Source: a virus. From it: 20,142 nucleotides of DNA. Positions 3,973 to 19,547 of this stretch are shown here, one piece after another. Location: positions 1 to 20,142 of the IMG/VR virus record IMGVR_UViG_3300028007_000010, one strand, 5' to 3'. Position 1 is the stretch's first letter, and each line of letters starts with the position of its first letter. Position numbers and translations under genes: made by a program. The notes below the pieces were generated by a model that saw only the letters and a program-made list of their open reading frames with translations, had not been told where the DNA came from and searched no databases.

Positions 3973-4773
3973 ATGCCCGCCCTGACCGTGCCGGCCGCGA
4001 CGCCGGTGATTCACCGTGCCTTCGCACCGCTGGTCGGCGTGGAGCTGCGCGACGCCTCCGCCACCGGCGACGGCTCGTACACCTTCTCCGGCTACGCCGC
4101 GGTCACCAACACCGAGACCACCCTGTACGAGGGGCGGTCCTGGGTGTGGCGCGAGCGGATCGCCCCCGGTGCGTTCGCCGACGTCCTCAGCCGCGTCGCC
4201 TCCGGCGAGGCCGACTACCCGGTGGTGCTGAACCACGAGCACGACAACCGGGCTGCCATGGCGTCGACCGACGTCCCCGCCTCGCAGCCTTATGGCCTGG
4301 AGCTCTCCGAGGACGGCCTCGGCCTGCGGGTGTTCGCCCGCCTCGACCCCCAGGACGCCGACGTGCAGCGGGTCGTGCCGAAGATCCGCGCCGGGGCCCT
4401 GTCGCAGATGAGCTTCGCGTTCCTGCCCGACGAGTGGGAGACGCTGTCCACCGAGGATGAGCAGGGGCGCATCGTCGAGGTGGACACGATCCGCTCCCTG
4501 CGCGCCCTCTACGACGTGACGGTGTGCGCCCACGGCGCCTACCCCACCACCACCGCAGACGTGCGCGGCCTTCTGGCCGCGTCCGGTCGCTCCGGCTTCG
4601 ACCCGGAGGGCCACCAGGAGGCCGAGCGTCGCGCTCCCGCGGGCGCCGAGCCCCCGACCCCCGTCGCGCCACAGGCGGGCGGTGGCGACCACGACCGCAC
4701 ACGGCGGCTGGCCCTGGCACGGGCACGCCTCCGGGCAGCGGTCGCCACCCACGGCACCAAGAGGTACACCTGA
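3973..4773 (+). CDS. Prohead protease, HK97 gp4-like (peptidase S78)
   Basis: A 266-residue maturation protease that would cleave the N-terminal scaffold of the capsid protein after prohead assembly. The core fits peptidase family S78: GYAAVTNTETTLYEG with RERIAPGAFADVL (about 41-73), the catalytic-His motif VVLNHEHD (H88) and the catalytic-Ser motif GALSQMSFAF (S144 or, more likely, S147). The core ends near residue 200; the last 65 residues are Pro/Ala/Arg-rich with a basic helix and look like a flexible tail, perhaps removed by self-cleavage. A GGAG near 3961 precedes ATG 3973 at good spacing. The stop overlaps the capsid start by one base (TGATG), tying protease and substrate production together. 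Confidence 0.92.
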   Translation: MPALTVPAATPVIHRAFAPLVGVELRDASATGDGSYTFSGYAAVTNTETTLYEGRSWVWRERIAPGAFADVLSRVASGEADYPVVLNHEHDNRAAMASTDVPASQPYGLELSEDGLGLRVFARLDPQDADVQRVVPKIRAGALSQMSFAFLPDEWETLSTEDEQGRIVEVDTIRSLRALYDVTVCAHGAYPTTTADVRGLLAASGRSGFDPEGHQEAERRAPAGAEPPTPVAPQAGGGDHDRTRRLALARARLRAAVATHGTKRYT

Positions 4774-6119
4774 TGCCAACCCTTCTGGAGCGCCGCCGCG
4801 AGGCCTACGAGGCCGCGCAGGCGCGCTCGACCGAGACCCTGGCCGCCCTGGACGATGTCGCCGACGACGCCGACCTGGACGCCCTGACGGCGGCCGCCGA
4901 CGAGGCCGCCGCCGAGCTCGAGCGCACGCGCGCCGCGCTCGACCAGGCCGAGGCCCTGGAGCGGGCCCGCGCGGCGCACCCGGTCCCCGAGGTCCGCACG
5001 CCCGACGTGCGCGTCACCGACGACCGAGCCGAGCTCACCTACCGGCACGGCGACCCCTCGCGGTCGTTCTTCTCGGACATGTACCGGGCGCGGTTCATGT
5101 CGGACCCCGAGGCGCAGCAGCGGCTGCAGCGCAACGCCCAGGAGCAGCACGTCATCCTGCGCGAGCGCGGCACCCAGTACCGCGACGTCGCCACGTCGGC
5201 CTTCGGCGGCCTGATCCCGCCGGTCTACCTGACCGACATGTACGCGCCGCTCATGCGGGCCGGGCGCCCGTTCGCCGAGGCCGTGCGGCGCCTCCCGCTG
5301 CCGTCCACCGGCATGAGCATCGTCATCCCGCGCGGCACGACCGGCGCGGCGACGGCGATCCAGGCGTCGGAGAACGCGGCCATCCAGGAGACCGACCCGG
5401 CCGTCACGGACCTCACCATCCCGGTGCGGACCATCGCCGGCCAGGTCGACGCCTCGCGCCAGTCGCTGGAGCGCGGCGAGGGGGTCGACGAGATCATCTT
5501 CGCGGACCTGGCCGCGGACTACGCGGTCAAGCTCGACGCCGGGCTCCTGTCCGGCGCCGGCACCTCCGGCACCCACCTGGGGATCCTGAACACCAGCGGC
5601 ATCATCACGGTCGCCTACACGGACGCCTCGCCGACCGTGCCGGAGATCTGGCCGAAGATCCAGGACGCCGCCCAGCAGATCGCCGCGGGCCGCTACCTGG
5701 CCGCGACGGCGCTGGTCATGCACCCCCGCCGGTGGGCCTGGTTCCAGGCCGCGCTCGACACGGCCAACCGGCCGCTGTTCCCGAGCAACGGCCCCATGAA
5801 CGCGATGGGCACGCCGGGCGCCGCTGTCCCGGGTGCGGTCGGCCAGCTGGCCGGCTTCCCCGTGATCGTCGACGCGAGCCTGCCGACCAACCTCGGCGTG
5901 GGCACCAACCAGGACCCGATCCTGCTGGTGCGCCTCGACGACATCCTGCTGTGGGAGGAGGGCGACGGCGTGCCCCGGCAGATGCGCTTCGAGGAGCCGC
6001 TGATCAACACCCTGACGGTGCGCCTCGTGGTCTACGGCTACTCGGCGTTCTCGGCCGGCCGCTACCCGCTGGCGACCGCCGTCATCAACGGCACCGGCAC
6101 CGTCCCGCCCACCTTCTAG
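4773..6119 (+). CDS. Major capsid protein, HK97 fold
   Basis: A 448-residue precursor. Residues 1 to about 70 form a highly charged Ala/Glu/Arg-rich coiled coil (PTLLERRREAYEAAQAR, then AADEAAAELERTRAALDQAE), the delta-domain scaffold expected in HK97-type capsids that lack a separate scaffold gene. The mature shell domain probably begins after a linker near residue 100-130 and shows typical HK97 features: GGLIPPVYLTDMYAPLMRAG, the E-loop-like GTTGAATAIQASENAAIQE, IAGQVDASRQSLERG, VMHPRRWAWF and FPVIVDASLPTN. ATG 4773 overlaps the protease stop by one base; the open frame further upstream is a shadow inside the protease gene. No separate scaffold or decoration gene of known type is seen nearby. 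Confidence 0.95.
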   Translation: MPTLLERRREAYEAAQARSTETLAALDDVADDADLDALTAAADEAAAELERTRAALDQAEALERARAAHPVPEVRTPDVRVTDDRAELTYRHGDPSRSFFSDMYRARFMSDPEAQQRLQRNAQEQHVILRERGTQYRDVATSAFGGLIPPVYLTDMYAPLMRAGRPFAEAVRRLPLPSTGMSIVIPRGTTGAATAIQASENAAIQETDPAVTDLTIPVRTIAGQVDASRQSLERGEGVDEIIFADLAADYAVKLDAGLLSGAGTSGTHLGILNTSGIITVAYTDASPTVPEIWPKIQDAAQQIAAGRYLAATALVMHPRRWAWFQAALDTANRPLFPSNGPMNAMGTPGAAVPGAVGQLAGFPVIVDASLPTNLGVGTNQDPILLVRLDDILLWEEGDGVPRQMRFEEPLINTLTVRLVVYGYSAFSAGRYPLATAVINGTGTVPPTF

Positions 6120-6876: not shown

Positions 6877-7164
6877 GTGGTCGCGACCCTGATCCGCCGC
6901 GGGCCTCCCGGCCCCTCCGGTCCGCCGGGGCCCGTTGGCCCCGCGGGTCCGCCTGGAGAGGGCGGCGATCTCAGCTACACGCACCAGCAGATGGTCCCCG
7001 CCGCGGTCTGGACCATCACCCACAACCTGGGCAAGCGCCCGTCGGTCGACGTCTTCGACTCAACCGGCCACGGGCCCGTCTTCGGCGACGTGGAGCACGT
7101 CTCCGACAACCAGCTGGCCATCACGTTCGGCGCCGCATTCGGCGGCGTCGCCTACCTCAACTAG
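6877..7164 (+). CDS. Collagen-like fibre protein with phage C-terminal domain
   Basis: A 95-residue protein starting at GTG 6877, four bases after the preceding stop. Residues 9-27 are an uninterrupted Gly-X-Y run (GPPGPSGPPGPVGPAGPPG), which should form a short collagen-like triple helix. Residues 32-95 form a beta-rich domain with YTHQQMVPAAVWTITHNLG, a central VDVFDSTGHGPV and the closing FGAAFGGVAYLN; this pattern recurs in many phage tail and fibre proteins. The protein is therefore probably a trimeric spike or fibre tip on the virion. Its position between capsid and connector genes leaves open whether it decorates the head or the tail. Start alternatives are few because the repeat begins at residue 9. 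Confidence 0.82.
   Translation: MVATLIRRGPPGPSGPPGPVGPAGPPGEGGDLSYTHQQMVPAAVWTITHNLGKRPSVDVFDSTGHGPVFGDVEHVSDNQLAITFGAAFGGVAYLN
6901..6957 (+). repeat. Collagen-like Gly-X-Y coding repeat
   Basis: Six consecutive in-frame Gly-X-Y triplets plus a closing Gly, rich in Pro at X and Y, encoded near the 5' end of the fibre gene. The codons vary between triplets, so this is a protein-level repeat and not a perfect DNA tandem repeat; slippage-driven length change is less likely than in perfect arrays. Confidence 0.8.
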
Positions 7165-7179
7165 TACGGGAGACGACGC

Positions 7180-8349
7180 GTGCCGACCTACCTCGTGCCG
7201 CTCGACCTGAGCAAGCAGGAGCTCAGGAACGCGCGGATCCACAACCTGGCCTCGGCGCCGCCTTCGCCGGTCGCGGGCCAGGTCTACTACGACACCACCA
7301 ACAACGCGCTCTACGTCTACAACGGCTCGACTTGGGTGTCGTCCTCGGGTGGCGCGCCGGCGGACGCGACCACCTCCAGCAAGGGCATCGTGCAGCTTGC
7401 CGGTGATCTCGGCGGCACCGGCTCCAGCGCGGCCGCTCCGGTGATCTCGGACGGGGCGATCACGGCCGCGAAGATCAGCGGGGCCCTGAAGCCCTCGGGG
7501 TCGGCCGGAGCGGGCACTGAGGCGCTTCGCGCGCTCGGCACAGCCGCGGGCACGGCGATGGCAGGTGACACCCGCCTGGATCAGATCGCCGCGCCGACGT
7601 CCTCGGTCAGCCTGAACAGCCAGCGGATCACGAGCCTGGCGGATCCGAGCGCCGCGCAGGACGCCGCGACGAAGGCGTACGTGGATGCGATCGCCGCCGG
7701 CTTCGACATGAAGGCCTCAGCACGCGCGGCCACCACGGCCAACATCACGCTCTCGGGCACCCAGACGATCGACGGCGTCGCCGTCGTCGCCAACGATCGC
7801 GTCCTTGTCAAGAACCAGTCGACGCCCGCACAGAACGGCATCTACGTCGTCGCGGCGGGTGCGTGGTCGCGGGCGACGGACTTCGACGCGTGGACCGAGG
7901 TCCCGGGCGCCGTCGTCGCGGTCGAGGCGGGCACCGTGAACGCCGACACCGTTTGGCTCTCGACGGCCGACCAGGGCGGCGCCCTCGGCACCACGGCCAT
8001 CGCCTTCACGGGCTTCTTCAATCGGGCCGCCGACCTCACCAACGTCACGGGCACGCTTGGGGTCGCGAGCGGTGGCACCGGGCAAACGACTTCGAAGGCT
8101 GCCCGTGAGACGGGCCTGGGCGCCGCCGGCTACTACTCGTCGGCCACCCACGGGGCCGGCACCAGCATCACCGTGACCCAGGCCACGCACGGCCTGCGGT
8201 CGTCGCGAGGGATCCTCGTACAGGTCCAACTGGAGTCGTCCGGTGAGGTCGTGGTCGCTGACGTCGCCGTCGCGGTCAACGGCGACGTCACCGTCACCTT
8301 CGCCGCGTCGCAGTCGGCGAACACCATCCGGATCACCCTGATCGGCTGA
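7180..8349 (+). CDS. Phage fibre / appendage protein
   Basis: A 389-residue protein from GTG 7180, with GGGAGA at 7169-7174 as ribosome site. The N-terminus has QVYYDTTNNALYVYNGSTWV (about 44-63), a motif of fibre-attachment regions, followed by SSKGIVQLAGDLGGTG. The middle has SLNSQRITSLADPSAAQDAATKAYVD, very common in tail-fibre proteins, and a domain with TIDGVAVVANDRVLVKNQ and GIYVVAAGAWSRATD. Near the end is ASGGTGQTT, another fibre signature, before a beta-rich tail. Repetitive beta structure and low charge fit a trimeric fibre. It would be a virion appendage that contacts the host surface; whether on head or tail cannot be told. Some such proteins sit at the tail tip, but here the gene lies well upstream of the tail genes. 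Confidence 0.85.
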   Translation: MPTYLVPLDLSKQELRNARIHNLASAPPSPVAGQVYYDTTNNALYVYNGSTWVSSSGGAPADATTSSKGIVQLAGDLGGTGSSAAAPVISDGAITAAKISGALKPSGSAGAGTEALRALGTAAGTAMAGDTRLDQIAAPTSSVSLNSQRITSLADPSAAQDAATKAYVDAIAAGFDMKASARAATTANITLSGTQTIDGVAVVANDRVLVKNQSTPAQNGIYVVAAGAWSRATDFDAWTEVPGAVVAVEAGTVNADTVWLSTADQGGALGTTAIAFTGFFNRAADLTNVTGTLGVASGGTGQTTSKAARETGLGAAGYYSSATHGAGTSITVTQATHGLRSSRGILVQVQLESSGEVVVADVAVAVNGDVTVTFAASQSANTIRITLIG

Positions 8350-8351
8350 CC

Positions 8352-9335
8352 GTGCCGAAGTGGCTCGCATCCCCTCCGCCGGTCTGGGCGAACGGCGGGG
8401 GGCGGGAAATGGTCTCCACGGTGCCGGCGGCCGGCACGTCGCTGCTGCTGGACCTGGCAGCGGGAAACGTGTTCGACGTCACCCTGGATCAAGCGACGTG
8501 CGCGCTCACCCTCGCCGGCGCGCTGAACGGGTACGCGTGCAGCGCGACCGTCTATCTGCGGCAGGGTACGGGCGGGTCGAAGGCAGTCACCTGGCCGGCG
8601 TCGGTGGCGTGGCCGTACGGAAACGAGCCCCTGCTGGCGACGGCAGCAGGGGCCCTCGACGTGATCACGCTGGTGACCCTCGACGGCGGCACCACGTGGG
8701 CGGGGTTCCACTCGACGACAGTCCCCGCGGAGGCCGACCCTGGCGGGCAGTGGATCAACGGCGGTGTGGAGACGATGCGCCGCCTCGACAAGAATGCGTC
8801 GTCGCTGGTCACGTCATCGGGACGCGTCAACCTCACCTACTTCACGTGCTGCCGGACACAGACGATCACGAAGATCGCCATCCAGTGCGGCGGTACCGCG
8901 GTGGCGGCGACACCCACCCTGGTCCGCTTCGGGTTCTATCAGGTGGCCGCAAACGGCGACTTGACCCGGGCGTGCGCCACGGGCAACGTCGCATCGTCCG
9001 GCTGCACCGAATACGACAACAGCGGCACCGTCACGGCGTCGAACGTCCGGTACGGGGGAACGACCTTCCGCGAGTACCAGGCGCCCCTCGCCGGTGACCT
9101 GGGGCTGCCGACGTCGTACACGTTCATCGCGGGCCGCCGGTACGCGGGCTCGCAGATACAGGTCAGTGGCGCGACGCTGGGCGCGTACTACGGCAACAAC
9201 GCCGGGTCGCCTGACCTGCGCCACCCCCCGCGCATGGCAGGCAGCCGCGATTCGCAGACGGACCTGCCGGCGTCAATCACTGCCGCGCAGGTGCTGGGCA
9301 CGAACGCGTGCATCTACATGGTCGGGTTGGCCTAG
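8352..9335 (+). CDS. Fibre-like protein with C-terminal beta-sandwich, possible receptor binding
   Basis: A 327-residue protein from GTG 8352, two bases after the preceding stop and without a clear ribosome site, so probably coupled. Residues about 25-120 form a recurrent phage appendage module: SLLLDLAAGNVFDVTL, then YACSATVYLRQGTGGSKAVTWP and a closing ITLVTLDGGTTWAGF. Residues about 160-327 form a second beta-rich domain with TQTITKIAIQCGGTA and ATPTLVRFGFYQVAANGDLT, similar in style to jelly-roll domains in phage tail proteins that may bind sugars. Seven cysteines, including a vicinal pair C166-C167, is high for a phage protein in this window and might mean disulfides in the particle. It lies directly before the GH26-like hydrolase and may help hold it or bind the same glycan; this is inference. 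Confidence 0.78.
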   Translation: MPKWLASPPPVWANGGGREMVSTVPAAGTSLLLDLAAGNVFDVTLDQATCALTLAGALNGYACSATVYLRQGTGGSKAVTWPASVAWPYGNEPLLATAAGALDVITLVTLDGGTTWAGFHSTTVPAEADPGGQWINGGVETMRRLDKNASSLVTSSGRVNLTYFTCCRTQTITKIAIQCGGTAVAATPTLVRFGFYQVAANGDLTRACATGNVASSGCTEYDNSGTVTASNVRYGGTTFREYQAPLAGDLGLPTSYTFIAGRRYAGSQIQVSGATLGAYYGNNAGSPDLRHPPRMAGSRDSQTDLPASITAAQVLGTNACIYMVGLA

Positions 9336-10373
9336 ATGCGCGGCGGTGTGCGCGCTGGTGCTGGGCGCCGGGGCGCCCGCATCGTCCCCACGACGGGCGT
9401 GCCAGCAGGCATCCTCACCGGGGCATACATCAAGGGCAACCAGTACGACCCGACCTGGTCGGATGCCCCCTGGGACGCTCGCACGATCAACGCGTTCGAG
9501 GCGAACGCCGGCAAGGCGTGCTCGGTCATCCACTGGGGGTCGTCGTGGGGCCACCAGACGGGCACGCAGACCAACGCTAACCAGCGGCCCTTCTATCCGG
9601 GCGACTCCAACATCGCTCGCAACCGCGGCTCCTACCCGATGATCGACTGGTCGCCGTCGAACTACACGAAGTACCCGGGCACCCAGACGCAGCCTGAGTA
9701 CGCCCTGTCCGCCATCGCGGGCGGGTCCTTCGACGCCTACATCGACTCGTGGGCGGGGCAGGTCGCGGCATGGGGCCACCCCCTGTTCGTGCGACCAATG
9801 TGGGAGGCCAACGGCACCTGGTTCCCCTGGTGCGTGGGCCAGAACGGCAACACCGCGGCGCACTTCGTGAGCGCCTGGCAGCGCATCGTCTCCCGCGCCC
9901 GCGCTGTCGGCGCCAACAACATTACCTGGCACTGGTGCCCCAACATCATCTACTCAGGTCAGTCGGCCACGTTGGCCGCGATCTACCCAGGCGACGACTA
10001 CGTCGATTGGGTGGGCTGCGACGGCTACAACGGTAACAACGCCGGATACATCGGCTTCCATGATCTATTCAAACCGACGTATGATGCGATCTACGCTCTT
10101 GCCTCACCAACCAAACCCTTCATGCTCGGCGAGTACGGCTGCGCAGCGGACCGTAACAAGGCGTTTTGGTTCACTGAGGCGTTCGCGAACGTGCATCTCT
10201 GGTTCCCACGCATGCGGGCTATGATCTATTTCAACTGGTCCGAGGCCTCGACCTGGCGCATCGAGGACCCTGAGGCAGCCCGGGCCGCTTACGCCGCCGG
10301 GATCTCCCCCGCCCACTTCCAGGCCGCGACATTCGCCGCAGCCGCGACCTCGCCTATCCCGGCGCCCGCATGA
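9336..10373 (+). CDS. Glycoside hydrolase resembling family GH26 (virion depolymerase candidate)
   Basis: A 345-residue protein whose ATG 9336 directly follows the preceding stop. From residue 25 it shows a (beta/alpha)8 glycosidase pattern. FVRPMWEANGTWFPW (151-165) matches the GH26 acid/base strand, with E157 as proton donor, and PFMLGEYGC (261-269) matches the nucleophile strand, with E266; their 109-residue spacing is normal for the family. Other barrel pieces are TGAYIKGNQYDP, YPMIDWSP and DYVDWVGCDGYNG. GH26 members include beta-mannanases and related endoglycanases; the residue before E157 is Trp where GH26 enzymes usually have His, so the substrate may differ. There is no signal peptide; the N-terminus is basic and Gly/Arg-rich. 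In this context it probably degrades a host surface polysaccharide during adsorption. G+C falls to about 50-55 % at 10021-10140, suggesting acquisition. The stop overlaps the next start as ATGA. Confidence 0.85.
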   Translation: MRGGVRAGAGRRGARIVPTTGVPAGILTGAYIKGNQYDPTWSDAPWDARTINAFEANAGKACSVIHWGSSWGHQTGTQTNANQRPFYPGDSNIARNRGSYPMIDWSPSNYTKYPGTQTQPEYALSAIAGGSFDAYIDSWAGQVAAWGHPLFVRPMWEANGTWFPWCVGQNGNTAAHFVSAWQRIVSRARAVGANNITWHWCPNIIYSGQSATLAAIYPGDDYVDWVGCDGYNGNNAGYIGFHDLFKPTYDAIYALASPTKPFMLGEYGCAADRNKAFWFTEAFANVHLWFPRMRAMIYFNWSEASTWRIEDPEAARAAYAAGISPAHFQAATFAAAATSPIPAPA

Positions 10374-11248
10374 GCATCCAGGTGCGAGCGGGCGAGCCGT
10401 TCGAGGCGAGCGTCCAGGGCTTCGACCCGGGGCTGGTGGGTGTCATCGGCGTGCGCGTGGACGATGGCCAGGGGGGGGCTGCGGTGATACGCACCGCCGC
10501 TGGCATCGTCGAGACGGCGAACGTCGACGGGTTGTCGACGTACACCGCAACGATCCCCGCCGCGCCGCCTGTGCCGGGTCAATACTGGATCGTCTGGGAC
10601 GACGGCACCGACTCTGCGACGGAGTCGCTCGTCGTCATCCCAGCCGGCTTCGACCTCTGCACCCTTGCGCAGGTGCGCCAGTGGCTGCAGAAGGCGCCCG
10701 CGGACACGTCTCAGGACGCTGCGATTCAGTCGGCGATCTCGCGTGCCTCGAGGGCGATCCTGACCTACGCCGAGCGCGAGTTCGTTCCGATGGTCGGCAA
10801 CCCCGCCACTCGAACCTTCATAGTGGGTGGGGCCTGGAAGACGGGCGTCTTGCGGATCGGAGACCTGGCGGCCGCACCGACCGCTGTGGTGGTGCGCACC
10901 CGCTCCGGACAGACCGTCGCCACGCTCAGCGTCGTCACCGACGTCGAGCCCGGTCCGGCAGTCCGTTGGCCTGGAGAGCCGATCACCGAGCTCACGGTGC
11001 TCGGCGGCGTCAACCTCGACGGCAGCCACCGGGTCGCCGTCACAGGTACCTGGGGCTTCCCCTCGGTCCCCGAGGACGTGCAGCAGGCCGCGATCGTGAC
11101 CGCTGGCAACTGGGTCCGCCGCTACGTCCAGGGCCGCGGCACCGGCACGCTCGCCTTCGATGGCTCGCCCGACGACGGCGTGGTCGAGTCCCTGCCCGCC
11201 GCCGCCCGGGCGCTGCTCGCCCCCTACCGGATGCCGGTGCTCGCGTGA
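10370..11248 (+). CDS. Head-tail connector, gp6-like, with N-terminal beta domain
   Basis: A 292-residue protein whose ATG 10370 overlaps the hydrolase stop by four bases. Residues about 95-292 match gp6-like head-tail connectors: DLCTLAQVRQWLQKAP opens the helical bundle, ISRASRAILTYAEREF follows, and VTGTWGFPSVPEDVQQAAIVTAGNWVRR is the typical late segment before the final helix. It would form a ring under the portal. Residues 1-92 are an added beta-rich domain (EPFEASVQGF, STYTATIPAAPPVPGQYWIVW) that looks Ig-like; many gp6 connectors are only 100-200 residues, so this is an extension or fusion. An 8-G run at 10471-10478 lies in that domain; if miscounted, the domain and connector could be separate genes. 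Confidence 0.82.
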   Translation: MSIQVRAGEPFEASVQGFDPGLVGVIGVRVDDGQGGAAVIRTAAGIVETANVDGLSTYTATIPAAPPVPGQYWIVWDDGTDSATESLVVIPAGFDLCTLAQVRQWLQKAPADTSQDAAIQSAISRASRAILTYAEREFVPMVGNPATRTFIVGGAWKTGVLRIGDLAAAPTAVVVRTRSGQTVATLSVVTDVEPGPAVRWPGEPITELTVLGGVNLDGSHRVAVTGTWGFPSVPEDVQQAAIVTAGNWVRRYVQGRGTGTLAFDGSPDDGVVESLPAAARALLAPYRMPVLA

Positions 11249-11727
11249 AGTTCCAGGTCAAGGTCGACGACGCGGCCCTGCACGCCGCCATGCGGTCCAC
11301 CCGCCGCGAGCTGGGCCAGGACGTCAAGCGGGCGTTCCTCACGGTGGGCCAGGAGGTCGTGCTGCCCGCCGCCCGCCGCAACGCCCCCGTCAAGACAGGC
11401 TGGCTGCGGCGCAACCTCATGATCGGAGCCACCACCACCCGGGGGTTCGTCCAGGTCAAGACGCGCACTCGCAGGGAGCGCGGCCGGGTCGCGCTCCTTG
11501 AGTTCGGCGGCACCCGGCGCGACACGATCCGCCCGCGCACCGCGGGCAACGTCCTTCGCATCAACGGACGCTTCGCCCGGTACGTCAGGACCGTGCGCCG
11601 CTACGAGGGGCAGCACTTCATGGAGCGGGCCGTGGACGGCCAGCAGCCGCGCATCCGCGCACGGCTGACCGACGAGCTCACCAAGGCGATCCAGGCGCAC
11701 GTCGACCGGGCAGGCGCGGGGCTCTAG
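11245..11727 (+). CDS. HK97 gp10-like head-tail joining protein
   Basis: A 160-residue protein from GTG 11245, which overlaps the connector stop by four bases (GTGA). It shows the gp10-like pattern: an N-terminal beta strand KFQVKVDDAAL, a helix with LGQDVKRAFLTVGQEVVLPAARRNAPVKTGWLRRNL (the APVKTGWLR turn is the family hallmark), a strand region VALLEFGGTRRDTIRPR, and a final HFMERAVDG with a C-terminal helix. Members sit at the neck and help attach the tail to the head. The protein is very basic (many Arg), which may help at the DNA-filled neck. The frame is open well upstream but only as a shadow of the connector gene. The tail terminator gene begins two bases after its stop. Confidence 0.85.
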   Translation: MKFQVKVDDAALHAAMRSTRRELGQDVKRAFLTVGQEVVLPAARRNAPVKTGWLRRNLMIGATTTRGFVQVKTRTRRERGRVALLEFGGTRRDTIRPRTAGNVLRINGRFARYVRTVRRYEGQHFMERAVDGQQPRIRARLTDELTKAIQAHVDRAGAGL

Positions 11728-17033: not shown

Positions 17034-19547
17034 GTGCCGATGACCCTCACGCTCACCGCTTACGACGCCGCCTCCCCCTCGTACGCCCTCATCACCGGCG
17101 CGGCCGCCGACCCGTGGAAGCTGGTCACCGCCAACTGGGGCAACGCCGTCTGGGACGTCCTTTACTCCGGGCCGCGCGGCACCCTCGGCGCCCGGCCCAC
17201 GTCCTCGACGGTGCAGAACCGGCAGGTGGCCCTCGGCCTGCGCCTGCTGCCCGCCTCGGTCATGGCGGGCGCGGGCCACCAGAGCGACCTCAACGAGATC
17301 GTCGACCTGATGCGGCGCTATGGCGGGCGGTTGACGGTGCGCCACGACTCGCAGACCTACCGCCAGCACCTGGAGGTGCTGGCCGGCACGGCGGCCCTCG
17401 GAGACTGGACCAACCGCGCCGAGTGGCGCGGCCGCGTCGACTACGCGCTCACCTTCGTGGCCGAGCCCTACGTGCGCGGCGACCCGATGGAGGTCGACGA
17501 CGGCTTCGACACGGACACCCGGGCGAACTACACCTACGACTCGGGCGCGTCGAGCCAGCACACCGTCTCTGGTGGGGAGGTTTCCTCCTCGACCACCTCC
17601 ACCATTTTCCGCGTCTTCCACTCGCTCTACGGCTACTCCTACGGCGACGTCCACGCGTCTGTCACCGGCACCGTCGGATCTTCGCTGACCAACTTCCGGC
17701 TCGGGGTCAGGCTCAAGCGGACCGCCGCCGACTCTGGGCTCGATGCCCACGTCCTCGACGACGGCACCAACTCCATCCTCTACATCGTGGGACGCCAGGC
17801 GGGGGCCCAGACGACGCTCGCCCAGACGACCCTGACCCGGCTCACCGCGGGACAGCGCATCCGGGTGTCCGCCTACATCGTGGGCAACACGGTCGTCGCG
17901 CAGTACTGGAACGGCGCGGCGTCCGAGGAGATCTACGCGAGCACCCCCACCTCGACGACGAGCGTGGTCCTCTCGTCCGCCGACGCCGCCCTTTACGGGC
18001 GCAACGTGACGGCCCCGAGCGGATACGTGTGGGCAGCGGCGGCCAGCGACGCGCGCCTGGATCGCTTCACCGTCTACCCCTACACATACCTGTCGCGCTC
18101 GATGCCCGAAGTGCTGACCATGCACGGCGCCATCCCTGGCGACGCGCCGGCGGCCTGCGACGTCGAGGTCTACGGGTCGGGGATGTTCGCGATGCTCGCC
18201 TGGTCGCGCCGTCCGCAGGGCGAGAACTGGGCCGCGCACGGCGACCTCGACGACTACCCCAACTCCGTCTCGTCGGACCCGACCGACCCGTGGTCGAACG
18301 CTGCCGTATCCGGCGTCACGGGCGCCGCCACCTCGAAGGCCGTCGCGCGGCCGGGCTACCGCTCGCGCAACGCCCTCCAGGTGGTCGCGCCAGCCACGGC
18401 CAACACGGGCGCTAGCCTGCGGATCGGGCGGCGGTTCCGGGCCGGTGTGAGCTACACCGCGAGCGCGTACCTGCGCGCCGCCTCGGGGACGACCAACGCG
18501 CGCATCCGCCTCGGCATCTCAGGCGACATCGCGTCCTCCACCGCCGTGGCCCTGTCGACCACCTGGACCCTGCACACCCTCACCTGGACGCCGACCGCCG
18601 ACCGCGACCTGGCCTGGTTCGCCGCGGAGATCACCGCCGCGACCGCCACCACGTTCCAGGTCGATCAGGTCATGGTCTACGAGACCGACCAGGCGGCGGC
18701 CGCGCTCGCCATCCCGTCCGGCCGCGGCGGGCGGGCGGCGCTGGCGGTGCTTGAGGCCGCCGACGGCTCGTCGCGGGTGCCCGGCGGCAGCGCAAGCCTC
18801 ACGTACACCACGGGCCTTGGCGCCGGCTACCGCTACGGGGATGCCCTGCGGCAGACCAACTCGACCGCCGGCATCCGGGTCTACTGGCCGCTCGACCCTG
18901 ACCTGCTCGATCCCGACCCCCACGCGACGGCGACGGACATCGAGATCTGGGCCCGCGTGGTCACGCCCGCCTGGGGCTCGGCCAATGGCGCGATCATCGG
19001 CTTCGTCTCCTCGCCCCCGGATGCGAGCGGCAACGCGAACCTCATCTACACCCGCGAGTACGGGGCCTCTGGCCGAACCCTTCCGTTCTCGCAGACGCTG
19101 CTAACCCGCGTGGGCACGGTGAGCGTCCCGCACCAGCGGGGCATCGGCGCCGCCGCCCGGCTGCTGGTCGGCGTCCAGATCGCTGCCCCGACGCTGGCCG
19201 GCAACGTGGACATCGACTACCTGATGGTCGTCCCCGCCCGCTCGCGGGCGCTGTCGCCCACCGGCAAGAGCGCGACCGGCTATCCCGAGTTCATCTACAA
19301 CCTGGGGTTGAAGCGGGCGACGGCCGACCTTCGCGGCTACCTCTACCGCGAGGCCGCCGTGGGGTTCTCCCCCTCGACGGGCCTCGGCGGGTCGCTGATC
19401 GAGCTGGACCCAGGCATCAACCAGTTCCTCGCCACGCTGCGGCCCATCCCCGACCGCACGGACGCCAACCCGGCCGACACCGCGACGGCGACCATGGGCG
19501 TGCGCTTCATCCCGACGCCGCGCTGGCACCAGCTGCGGGACGCCTAG
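17034..19547 (+). CDS. Minor tail protein, Dit-like with carbohydrate-binding-like modules
   Basis: An 837-residue protein from GTG 17034 (GGAG at 17021-17024; ATG 17040 also possible), the first gene after the tape measure, where siphoviruses encode the distal tail protein. Residues 1 to about 152 fit a Dit-like N-terminus (WKLVTANWGNAVWDVLYSGPRG, VDLMRRYGGRLTVRHDSQTYRQHLEVL, GRVDYALTFVAEPYVRG). Residues about 155-350 form a LamG-like beta-sandwich pattern (DDGFDTDTRANYTY, QRIRVSAYIVGNTVVAQYWNG, DARLDRFTVYPY). About 440-552 resembles a CBM4/9-type module (RNALQVVAPATANTGASLRIG, YTASAYLRAASGTTNARI, TTFQVDQVMVYETD). More beta-rich segments follow, ending with a Dit-like return (NQFLATLRPIPD, GVRFIPTPRWHQLRD). 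It would form the tail-tip ring and bind host glycans. It is much larger than simple Dit proteins (around 250-300 residues), by insertion of these modules. Confidence 0.85.
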   Translation: MPMTLTLTAYDAASPSYALITGAAADPWKLVTANWGNAVWDVLYSGPRGTLGARPTSSTVQNRQVALGLRLLPASVMAGAGHQSDLNEIVDLMRRYGGRLTVRHDSQTYRQHLEVLAGTAALGDWTNRAEWRGRVDYALTFVAEPYVRGDPMEVDDGFDTDTRANYTYDSGASSQHTVSGGEVSSSTTSTIFRVFHSLYGYSYGDVHASVTGTVGSSLTNFRLGVRLKRTAADSGLDAHVLDDGTNSILYIVGRQAGAQTTLAQTTLTRLTAGQRIRVSAYIVGNTVVAQYWNGAASEEIYASTPTSTTSVVLSSADAALYGRNVTAPSGYVWAAAASDARLDRFTVYPYTYLSRSMPEVLTMHGAIPGDAPAACDVEVYGSGMFAMLAWSRRPQGENWAAHGDLDDYPNSVSSDPTDPWSNAAVSGVTGAATSKAVARPGYRSRNALQVVAPATANTGASLRIGRRFRAGVSYTASAYLRAASGTTNARIRLGISGDIASSTAVALSTTWTLHTLTWTPTADRDLAWFAAEITAATATTFQVDQVMVYETDQAAAALAIPSGRGGRAALAVLEAADGSSRVPGGSASLTYTTGLGAGYRYGDALRQTNSTAGIRVYWPLDPDLLDPDPHATATDIEIWARVVTPAWGSANGAIIGFVSSPPDASGNANLIYTREYGASGRTLPFSQTLLTRVGTVSVPHQRGIGAAARLLVGVQIAAPTLAGNVDIDYLMVVPARSRALSPTGKSATGYPEFIYNLGLKRATADLRGYLYREAAVGFSPSTGLGGSLIELDPGINQFLATLRPIPDRTDANPADTATATMGVRFIPTPRWHQLRDA

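What the first reader, a model, noticed from the sequence alone, without database searches (positions are those of the whole stretch)
9336..10373. GH26-like glycoside hydrolase encoded inside the virion operon
The sequence shows both catalytic strands of a GH26-type barrel (E157 in RPMWEANG, E266 in MLGEYGC) in a gene set between fibre-like genes and the connector, with an ATGA overlap to the connector, so it is expressed with structural genes and has no signal peptide. GH26 enzymes cut beta-mannan and related polymers; a virion copy would be a depolymerase for a host surface glycan of an actinobacterium. Trp replaces the usual His before the acid/base Glu, hinting at a different substrate. 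This is the strongest candidate for uncommon biology in the window.
Basis: partly seen in the sequence, partly recalled or inferred. Interest (0 to 1): 0.75.

Follow-up and report, generated by a model that had tools for sequence, protein, structure and literature searches.

The report
Sugar-cutting enzyme in phage structural genes
A phage that probably infects actinobacteria carries, among the genes for its own particle, a complete sugar-chain-cutting enzyme of the GH26 family, and relatives in other phages are fused to neck, tail and baseplate parts, so the enzyme probably rides on the particle and cuts the host's surface polysaccharide.

Summary
ORF 9336-10373 (345 aa) is a GH26-type enzyme: 48.6 bits against Pfam PF02156 (cut-off 20.2), a confident TIM-barrel model (pLDDT 92.9) that superposes best on the lichenase CtLic26A (rmsd 1.7-1.9 A), with E157 and E266 on that enzyme's acid/base E109 and nucleophile E222.

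The virion reading is well supported indirectly but not proven. The gene sits between capsid-decoration/fibre genes and the head-tail adaptor, with no gap upstream and an ATGA overlap downstream. A two-gene unit (fibre 8352-9335 plus GH26) recurs, 40-41% identical, in an otherwise different phage. Related viral GH26 domains are fused to a head-tail adaptor, tail proteins and baseplate-wedge-like domains.

Two corrections. The His-to-Trp change is real but not phage-specific: 19 of 54 cellular relatives sampled have it. The nearest characterised enzyme is a mixed-linkage beta-glucanase, not a mannanase; a beta-glycan of the host surface is the best guess, unproven. Caution: two sister phage copies (L009, L011) have signal peptides, so export or release at lysis remains a live rival.

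Verdict: new variant of a known kind (virion-borne depolymerase), moderate interest.

The parts
9336..10373 (+). GH26-type glycoside hydrolase, 345 aa; residues 24-345 form the barrel domain, residues 1-23 are a low-confidence, basic, probably flexible N-terminus
   Evidence: Pfam PF02156 48.6 bits; model pLDDT 92.9; Foldseek CtLic26A
9801..9806 (+). codons of W156 and E157: Trp in place of the usual His, and the acid/base Glu
   Evidence: Aligns with H108-E109 of CtLic26A; E157 invariant in 71 aligned sequences
10131..10133 (+). codon of E266, the nucleophile
   Evidence: Aligns with E222 of CtLic26A; Glu in nearly all relatives
8352..9335 (+). fibre protein, 327 aa, probable partner and anchor of the GH26; its stop TAG touches the GH26 start ATG in the same frame
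   Evidence: phrog_9017 tail fibre 2e-24; 41% identical homologue directly before GH26 in L010; part found in a Gordonia phage minor tail protein
10370..11248 (+). head-tail adaptor, start overlaps the GH26 stop (ATGA)
   Evidence: phrog_442 1.5e-19; junction
7180..8349 (+). capsid decoration or fibre-type virion protein
   Evidence: phrog_2647 head decoration 3e-47; 9nx3 capsid decoration protein 1.4e-11 over residues 179-389
6877..7164 (+). short collagen-like fibre-type protein, 95 aa
   Evidence: Collagen-like stretch (Pfam, below cut-off) and PHROG fibre/virion matches
4773..6119 (+). major capsid protein (context)
   Evidence: Pfam Phage_capsid; phrog_2263
11245..11727 (+). tail completion or Neck1 protein (context)
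   Evidence: phrog_5 5.8e-13

Best explanation
The gene encodes a catalytically competent GH26-type glycosidase made with the structural proteins and carried on the virion, most likely attached through the fibre protein encoded just upstream, on the capsid/neck fibre set near the head-tail junction. During adsorption it would hydrolyse a beta-linked surface polysaccharide of the host, probably an actinobacterium, and so open a path to the cell wall. Shown by computation: family, fold, catalytic pair, operon position, recurrence of the fibre-GH26 unit, and fusions of related viral GH26 domains to virion proteins. Inferred: presence in the virion, attachment through the fibre, location at capsid/neck rather than tail tip, and a mixed-linkage glucan or other bacterial beta-glycan as substrate.
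For: Family and fold. Catalytic residues kept. Slot between capsid/fibre genes and head-tail adaptor, tightly coupled on both sides. The same fibre-GH26 pair (41% and 40% identity) in L010, whose capsid protein is of another family. Both genes share atypical codon usage. L009/L011: GH26 directly after a homologue of a solved phage virion fibre protein (8jou; Pfam Gp80). Fusions in one ORF: SU10 head-tail adaptor (L012), tail protein (L023) and tail-fibre end (L014), baseplate-wedge-like domain (L117, L120). No signal peptide in the window copy or in L010.
Against: No proteomic evidence. L009 and L011, in the same clade, have signal-peptide-like N-termini. The fused examples are from other branches of the tree. 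The window protein itself has no recognisable virion-attachment domain. The fibre model was too poor to test an interface.
Confidence: 0.65

Rival explanations
1. A soluble late enzyme: made with the structural proteins but not attached to the virion, released by lysis (or exported in relatives with signal peptides), where it thins surrounding exopolysaccharide so that progeny can spread and re-adsorb.
For: L009 and L011 of the same clade have signal-peptide-like N-termini. The window protein has no clear anchor domain.
Against: Window copy and L010 lack a signal peptide, are paired with a fibre gene, and many viral relatives are fused to virion domains.
Confidence: 0.22
2. An auxiliary metabolic gene: the enzyme degrades plant or environmental polysaccharide to feed the infected host, as soil-virus surveys have assumed for viral GH26 genes.
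For: Viral GH26 is listed among auxiliary CAZymes in soil virus surveys (PMC6460857, PMC10127799). A viral GH5 had endomannanase activity (PMC6786970).
Against: Position inside the structural operon and no export signal, so the product cannot reach external polymer before lysis.
Confidence: 0.07
3. A catalytically dead or purely binding GH26 fold used as a structural or receptor-binding module.
For: The His of the HE motif is replaced by Trp.
Against: Both catalytic Glu and R153, N159, G160 and W165 are kept; the Trp form is common in secreted-type cellular enzymes, and the HE His is reported as not conserved in GH26 xylanases either (PMC6556568).
Confidence: 0.05

Closest known systems
CtLic26A (endoglucanase H GH26 module of Clostridium thermocellum, PDB 2bv9/2cip), a GH26 lichenase
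   Same: Same fold over about 270 residues (rmsd 1.7-1.9 A) and same catalytic glutamates
   Different: About 28% identity; Trp instead of His before the acid/base; encoded in a phage structural operon, not a cellulosomal enzyme
GH26 beta-mannanases (for example BoMan26A/B, CjMan26A) and GH26 xylanases
   Same: Same family and barrel
   Different: Much more distant (TM about 0.6, 16-18% identity); HE motif of the mannanases absent
Virion-borne phage depolymerases, especially the phi29 gp12 collar appendages
   Same: Works-like comparison: an enzyme near the neck that digests a surface polymer of a Gram-positive host (gp12 per PMC9863714)
   Different: Different fold (GH26 barrel rather than gp12's own fold) and a separate gene next to a fibre gene; virion location of the GH26 not shown
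GH26 genes of other uncultivated viruses (L009-L014, L023, L117, L120)
   Same: Same enzyme family in virion gene contexts or fused to virion domains; L009-L011 form a supported clade with the window copy
   Different: Different anchors: adaptor, tail protein, fibre end, baseplate-wedge-like or LamG domain; L009 and L011 have signal peptides
Viral GH26 'auxiliary CAZymes', including Caudovirales GX15bay
   Same: Viral GH26 genes reported in soil (PMC6460857)
   Different: In GX15bay two GH26-type genes lie among glycosyltransferase genes, not in the structural operon, with 25% identity

Membership tests
Glycoside hydrolase family GH26 (clan GH-A) | Sequence profile match above curated cut-off | tested here: met
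   PF02156 48.6 bits against 20.2
Glycoside hydrolase family GH26 (clan GH-A) | (beta/alpha)8 barrel | tested here: met
   Model with eight barrel strands, pLDDT 92.9; Foldseek hits are GH26 first
Glycoside hydrolase family GH26 (clan GH-A) | Two catalytic Glu at strands 4 and 7 | tested here: met
   E157 and E266 align with E109 and E222 of CtLic26A and sit after strand 4 and on strand 7 of the model; their distance could not be measured
Glycoside hydrolase family GH26 (clan GH-A) | His before the acid/base Glu (HE motif) | tested here: not met
   Trp instead. This motif is not universal in GH26: reported absent in the xylanase branch and in a branch of unknown function (PMC6556568), so it does not exclude membership
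Glycoside hydrolase family GH26 (clan GH-A) | Hydrolysis of a beta-glycan with retention | not testable with these tools
   Needs enzyme assay
Lichenase subgroup of GH26 (CtLic26A-like) | Nearest characterised relative is a lichenase | tested here: met
Lichenase subgroup of GH26 (CtLic26A-like) | Activity on beta-1,3-1,4-glucan | not testable with these tools
   Needs enzyme assay
Virion-associated depolymerase | Gene within the structural operon | tested here: met
Virion-associated depolymerase | Virion-attachment domain in the same protein | tested here: inconclusive
   None recognised in the window protein; present in fused relatives; a fibre gene adjoins it
Virion-associated depolymerase | Present in purified virions | not testable with these tools
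   Needs virion proteomics
Auxiliary metabolic gene | Gene placed outside the virion module, product able to act in host metabolism | tested here: not met
   Inside the structural operon, no export signal

The most novel reading that the evidence does not exclude
GH26 enzymes of the lichenase-like branch have been recruited more than once as exchangeable virion modules. In the window's lineage the enzyme is displayed on capsid/neck fibres next to the head-tail junction rather than at the tail tip, so that GH26 genes listed as soil-virus auxiliary metabolic genes are often host-entry enzymes.
Probability: 0.4. Interest if true: 0.62.

Novelty: new variant of a known kind. Interest (0 to 1): 0.5.

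Why it matters
Phage depolymerases against surface glycans of actinobacteria are poorly known. If this GH26 branch is a recurrent virion enzyme, it supplies a defined, expressible set of candidates, points to a beta-glycan as a phage barrier in these hosts, and warns that viral glycosidase genes counted as carbon-cycling auxiliary genes may be entry enzymes.

Tried and rejected
Single-protein scans of viral contigs with the GH26, fibre and adaptor proteins found nothing; an alignment query was needed for GH26. The fibre alignment scan found only the L010 contig. Two 'phage' records with GH26 (MT836699, MT836656) were set aside as Bacteroidota-type DNA: their ORFs look like SusC/SusD and mannan-utilisation genes (judged by reading the translations). 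Trp as a phage-specific adaptation: rejected. All nearby viral GH26 as one clade: rejected, AU test p 0.004. The C-terminal end shared by the window copy (SPIPAPA) and L010 (GPITAPA) as a virion anchor: rejected, because a GH26 of an actinobacterial MAG ends in SPIPAP too (L034). The fibre model (pLDDT 38) was too poor to use, so no fold search was made with it. BFVD held no close GH26 match. A host search with the capsid protein in one phylum gave one unnamed 37% match; not decisive. Read-through of the TAG between fibre and GH26 was considered: adjacency puts them in one frame, but nothing supports read-through, and the junction in L010 is an out-of-frame ATGA.

Full report
What is there. 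The window is a whole 20,142-base virus record. ORF 9336-10373 encodes 345 aa. It passes the Pfam GH26 cut-off (48.6 against 20.2 bits). The best solved relative is CtLic26A, a lichenase (phmmer 2e-31 over residues 52-324). In that alignment E157 falls on E109 and E266 on E222; that these two are the acid/base and nucleophile of CtLic26A is prior knowledge of that enzyme, not tested here. A model from 71 aligned relatives has mean pLDDT 92.9 and pTM 0.89, with eight barrel strands; E157 follows strand 4 and E266 sits on strand 7. The first seven Foldseek hits are CtLic26A structures or a construct of the same protein (rmsd 1.7-2.2 A, target TM 0.88-0.92); other GH26 xylanases and mannanases follow at TM about 0.6.

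Neighbourhood. Upstream lie terminase, portal, prohead protease and capsid protein, a short collagen-like protein (6877-7164), a protein resembling a solved capsid decoration protein (7180-8349) and a fibre protein (8352-9335). Downstream are a head-tail adaptor (phrog_442), a Neck1-type protein and a tape measure protein, and an 837-aa protein with a carbohydrate-binding-like domain. The fibre stop codon touches the GH26 start codon, and the GH26 stop overlaps the adaptor start. The fibre and GH26 genes have low GC3 and a codon usage about twice as divergent as that of genes of similar length (0.145 and 0.140 against 0.05-0.08 per codon), which fits joint acquisition. The terminase resembles those of Streptomyces, Arthrobacter, Mycobacterium and Gordonia phages at up to 38%, so the host is probably an actinobacterium.

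Relatives in viruses. A scan with an alignment found 25 viral contigs with relatives, and a second scan added more. L010 has a 41% identical fibre gene directly before a 40% identical GH26 gene with the same Trp, although its capsid protein is of another family. L009 and L011 have GH26 right after a homologue of the podophage GP4 fibre I protein (L009: Pfam Gp80, and solved virion protein 8jou; both: phrog_240). L009 also has an adaptor of the window's family further downstream. In L012 the GH26 domain and an SU10-type head-tail adaptor form one ORF. In L023 GH26 is fused to a tail protein and in L014 to a tail-fibre end; in L117 and L120 to a baseplate-wedge-like domain. In L013 and L120 a LamG domain precedes it. 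These fusions are the strongest indirect evidence that viral GH26 of this branch is virion-borne. They come from other lineages than the window's, so they support the class rather than prove the case.

Tree. The window copy, L010, L009 and L011 form one supported clade (96/94) among cellular enzymes. Holding all nine viral sequences of that tree together is rejected (AU p 0.004), so viruses probably took up this enzyme more than once.

The Trp. Trp precedes the acid/base in 10 of 16 viral and 19 of 54 cellular relatives in the alignment, the cellular ones mostly from Chloroflexota and Solirubrobacterales, many with signal-peptide-like starts. The scan pattern allowed both His and Trp, so the proportions depend on the sample. 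[quoted passage not shown] The Trp therefore marks a widespread uncharacterised group rather than a phage novelty.

Substrate. Nothing here fixes it. Two clues point to bacterial surface polysaccharide rather than plant mannan. The closest cellular relative lies on a 4-kb contig of an actinobacterial MAG that carries two GH26 genes in tandem after a UDP-glucuronate decarboxylase gene. GH26 genes also sit beside a cellulose-synthase-like GT2 and a UDP-glucose dehydrogenase in a Curtobacterium plasmid and two Actinacidiphila genomes. Only a few of the 80 cellular loci show this. Bacterial mixed-linkage beta-glucans exist, including in a Gram-positive species (PMC10374906, PMC5567048).

Caution. 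L009 and L011 begin with signal-peptide-like segments, while the window copy and L010 do not. Export or release at lysis is thus a real rival for the clade. No tool here can show the protein in particles.

Known or new. Viral GH26 genes have been listed as auxiliary CAZymes of soil viruses (PMC6460857, PMC10127799). The literature searches run here found no report of a GH26 virion enzyme, within an open-access library only. Enzymatic collar appendages are known from phi29 (PMC9863714) and neck fibres from cyanophage A-1(L) (PMC10966104). This is therefore rated a new variant of a known kind.

Noticed in passing
L012:3-2006: One ORF (open at its 5' end) joins a GH26 domain to an SU10-type head-tail adaptor domain, and the next gene is a virion structural protein with an amidase-like part.
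   Followed up: partly
L117:8380-10323 and L120:8320-10341: GH26 domains fused to a C-terminal baseplate-wedge (gp25-like) domain; in L120 a tape-measure-like stretch lies just upstream.
   Followed up: partly
L009:7199-8182 and L011:7929-8524: GH26 genes coupled to a head/tail-fibre gene in structural operons, yet with signal-peptide-like N-termini (in L009 with a lipobox-like LLGC), suggesting export from the infected cell.
   Followed up: partly
L034:1-4078: Actinobacterial MAG contig with two GH26 genes in tandem behind a UDP-glucuronate decarboxylase gene; these are the closest cellular relatives found.
   Followed up: partly
L008, L082, L111: GH26 next to a cellulose-synthase-like GT2 and a UDP-glucose dehydrogenase in actinobacteria: a possible beta-glycan synthesis and trimming cluster.
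   Followed up: partly
L005 and L006 (MT836699, MT836656): Records deposited as 'Bacteriophage sp.' whose genes look like Bacteroidota polysaccharide-utilisation genes, so probably bacterial DNA.
   Followed up: partly
window 17034-19547: 837-aa protein after the tape measure gene with a CBM_4_9-like carbohydrate-binding domain at residues 416-533; no other family match.
   Followed up: no
window 9333-9338: The fibre stop TAG is followed at once by the GH26 ATG in the same frame, so a single amber codon separates the two proteins.
   Followed up: partly
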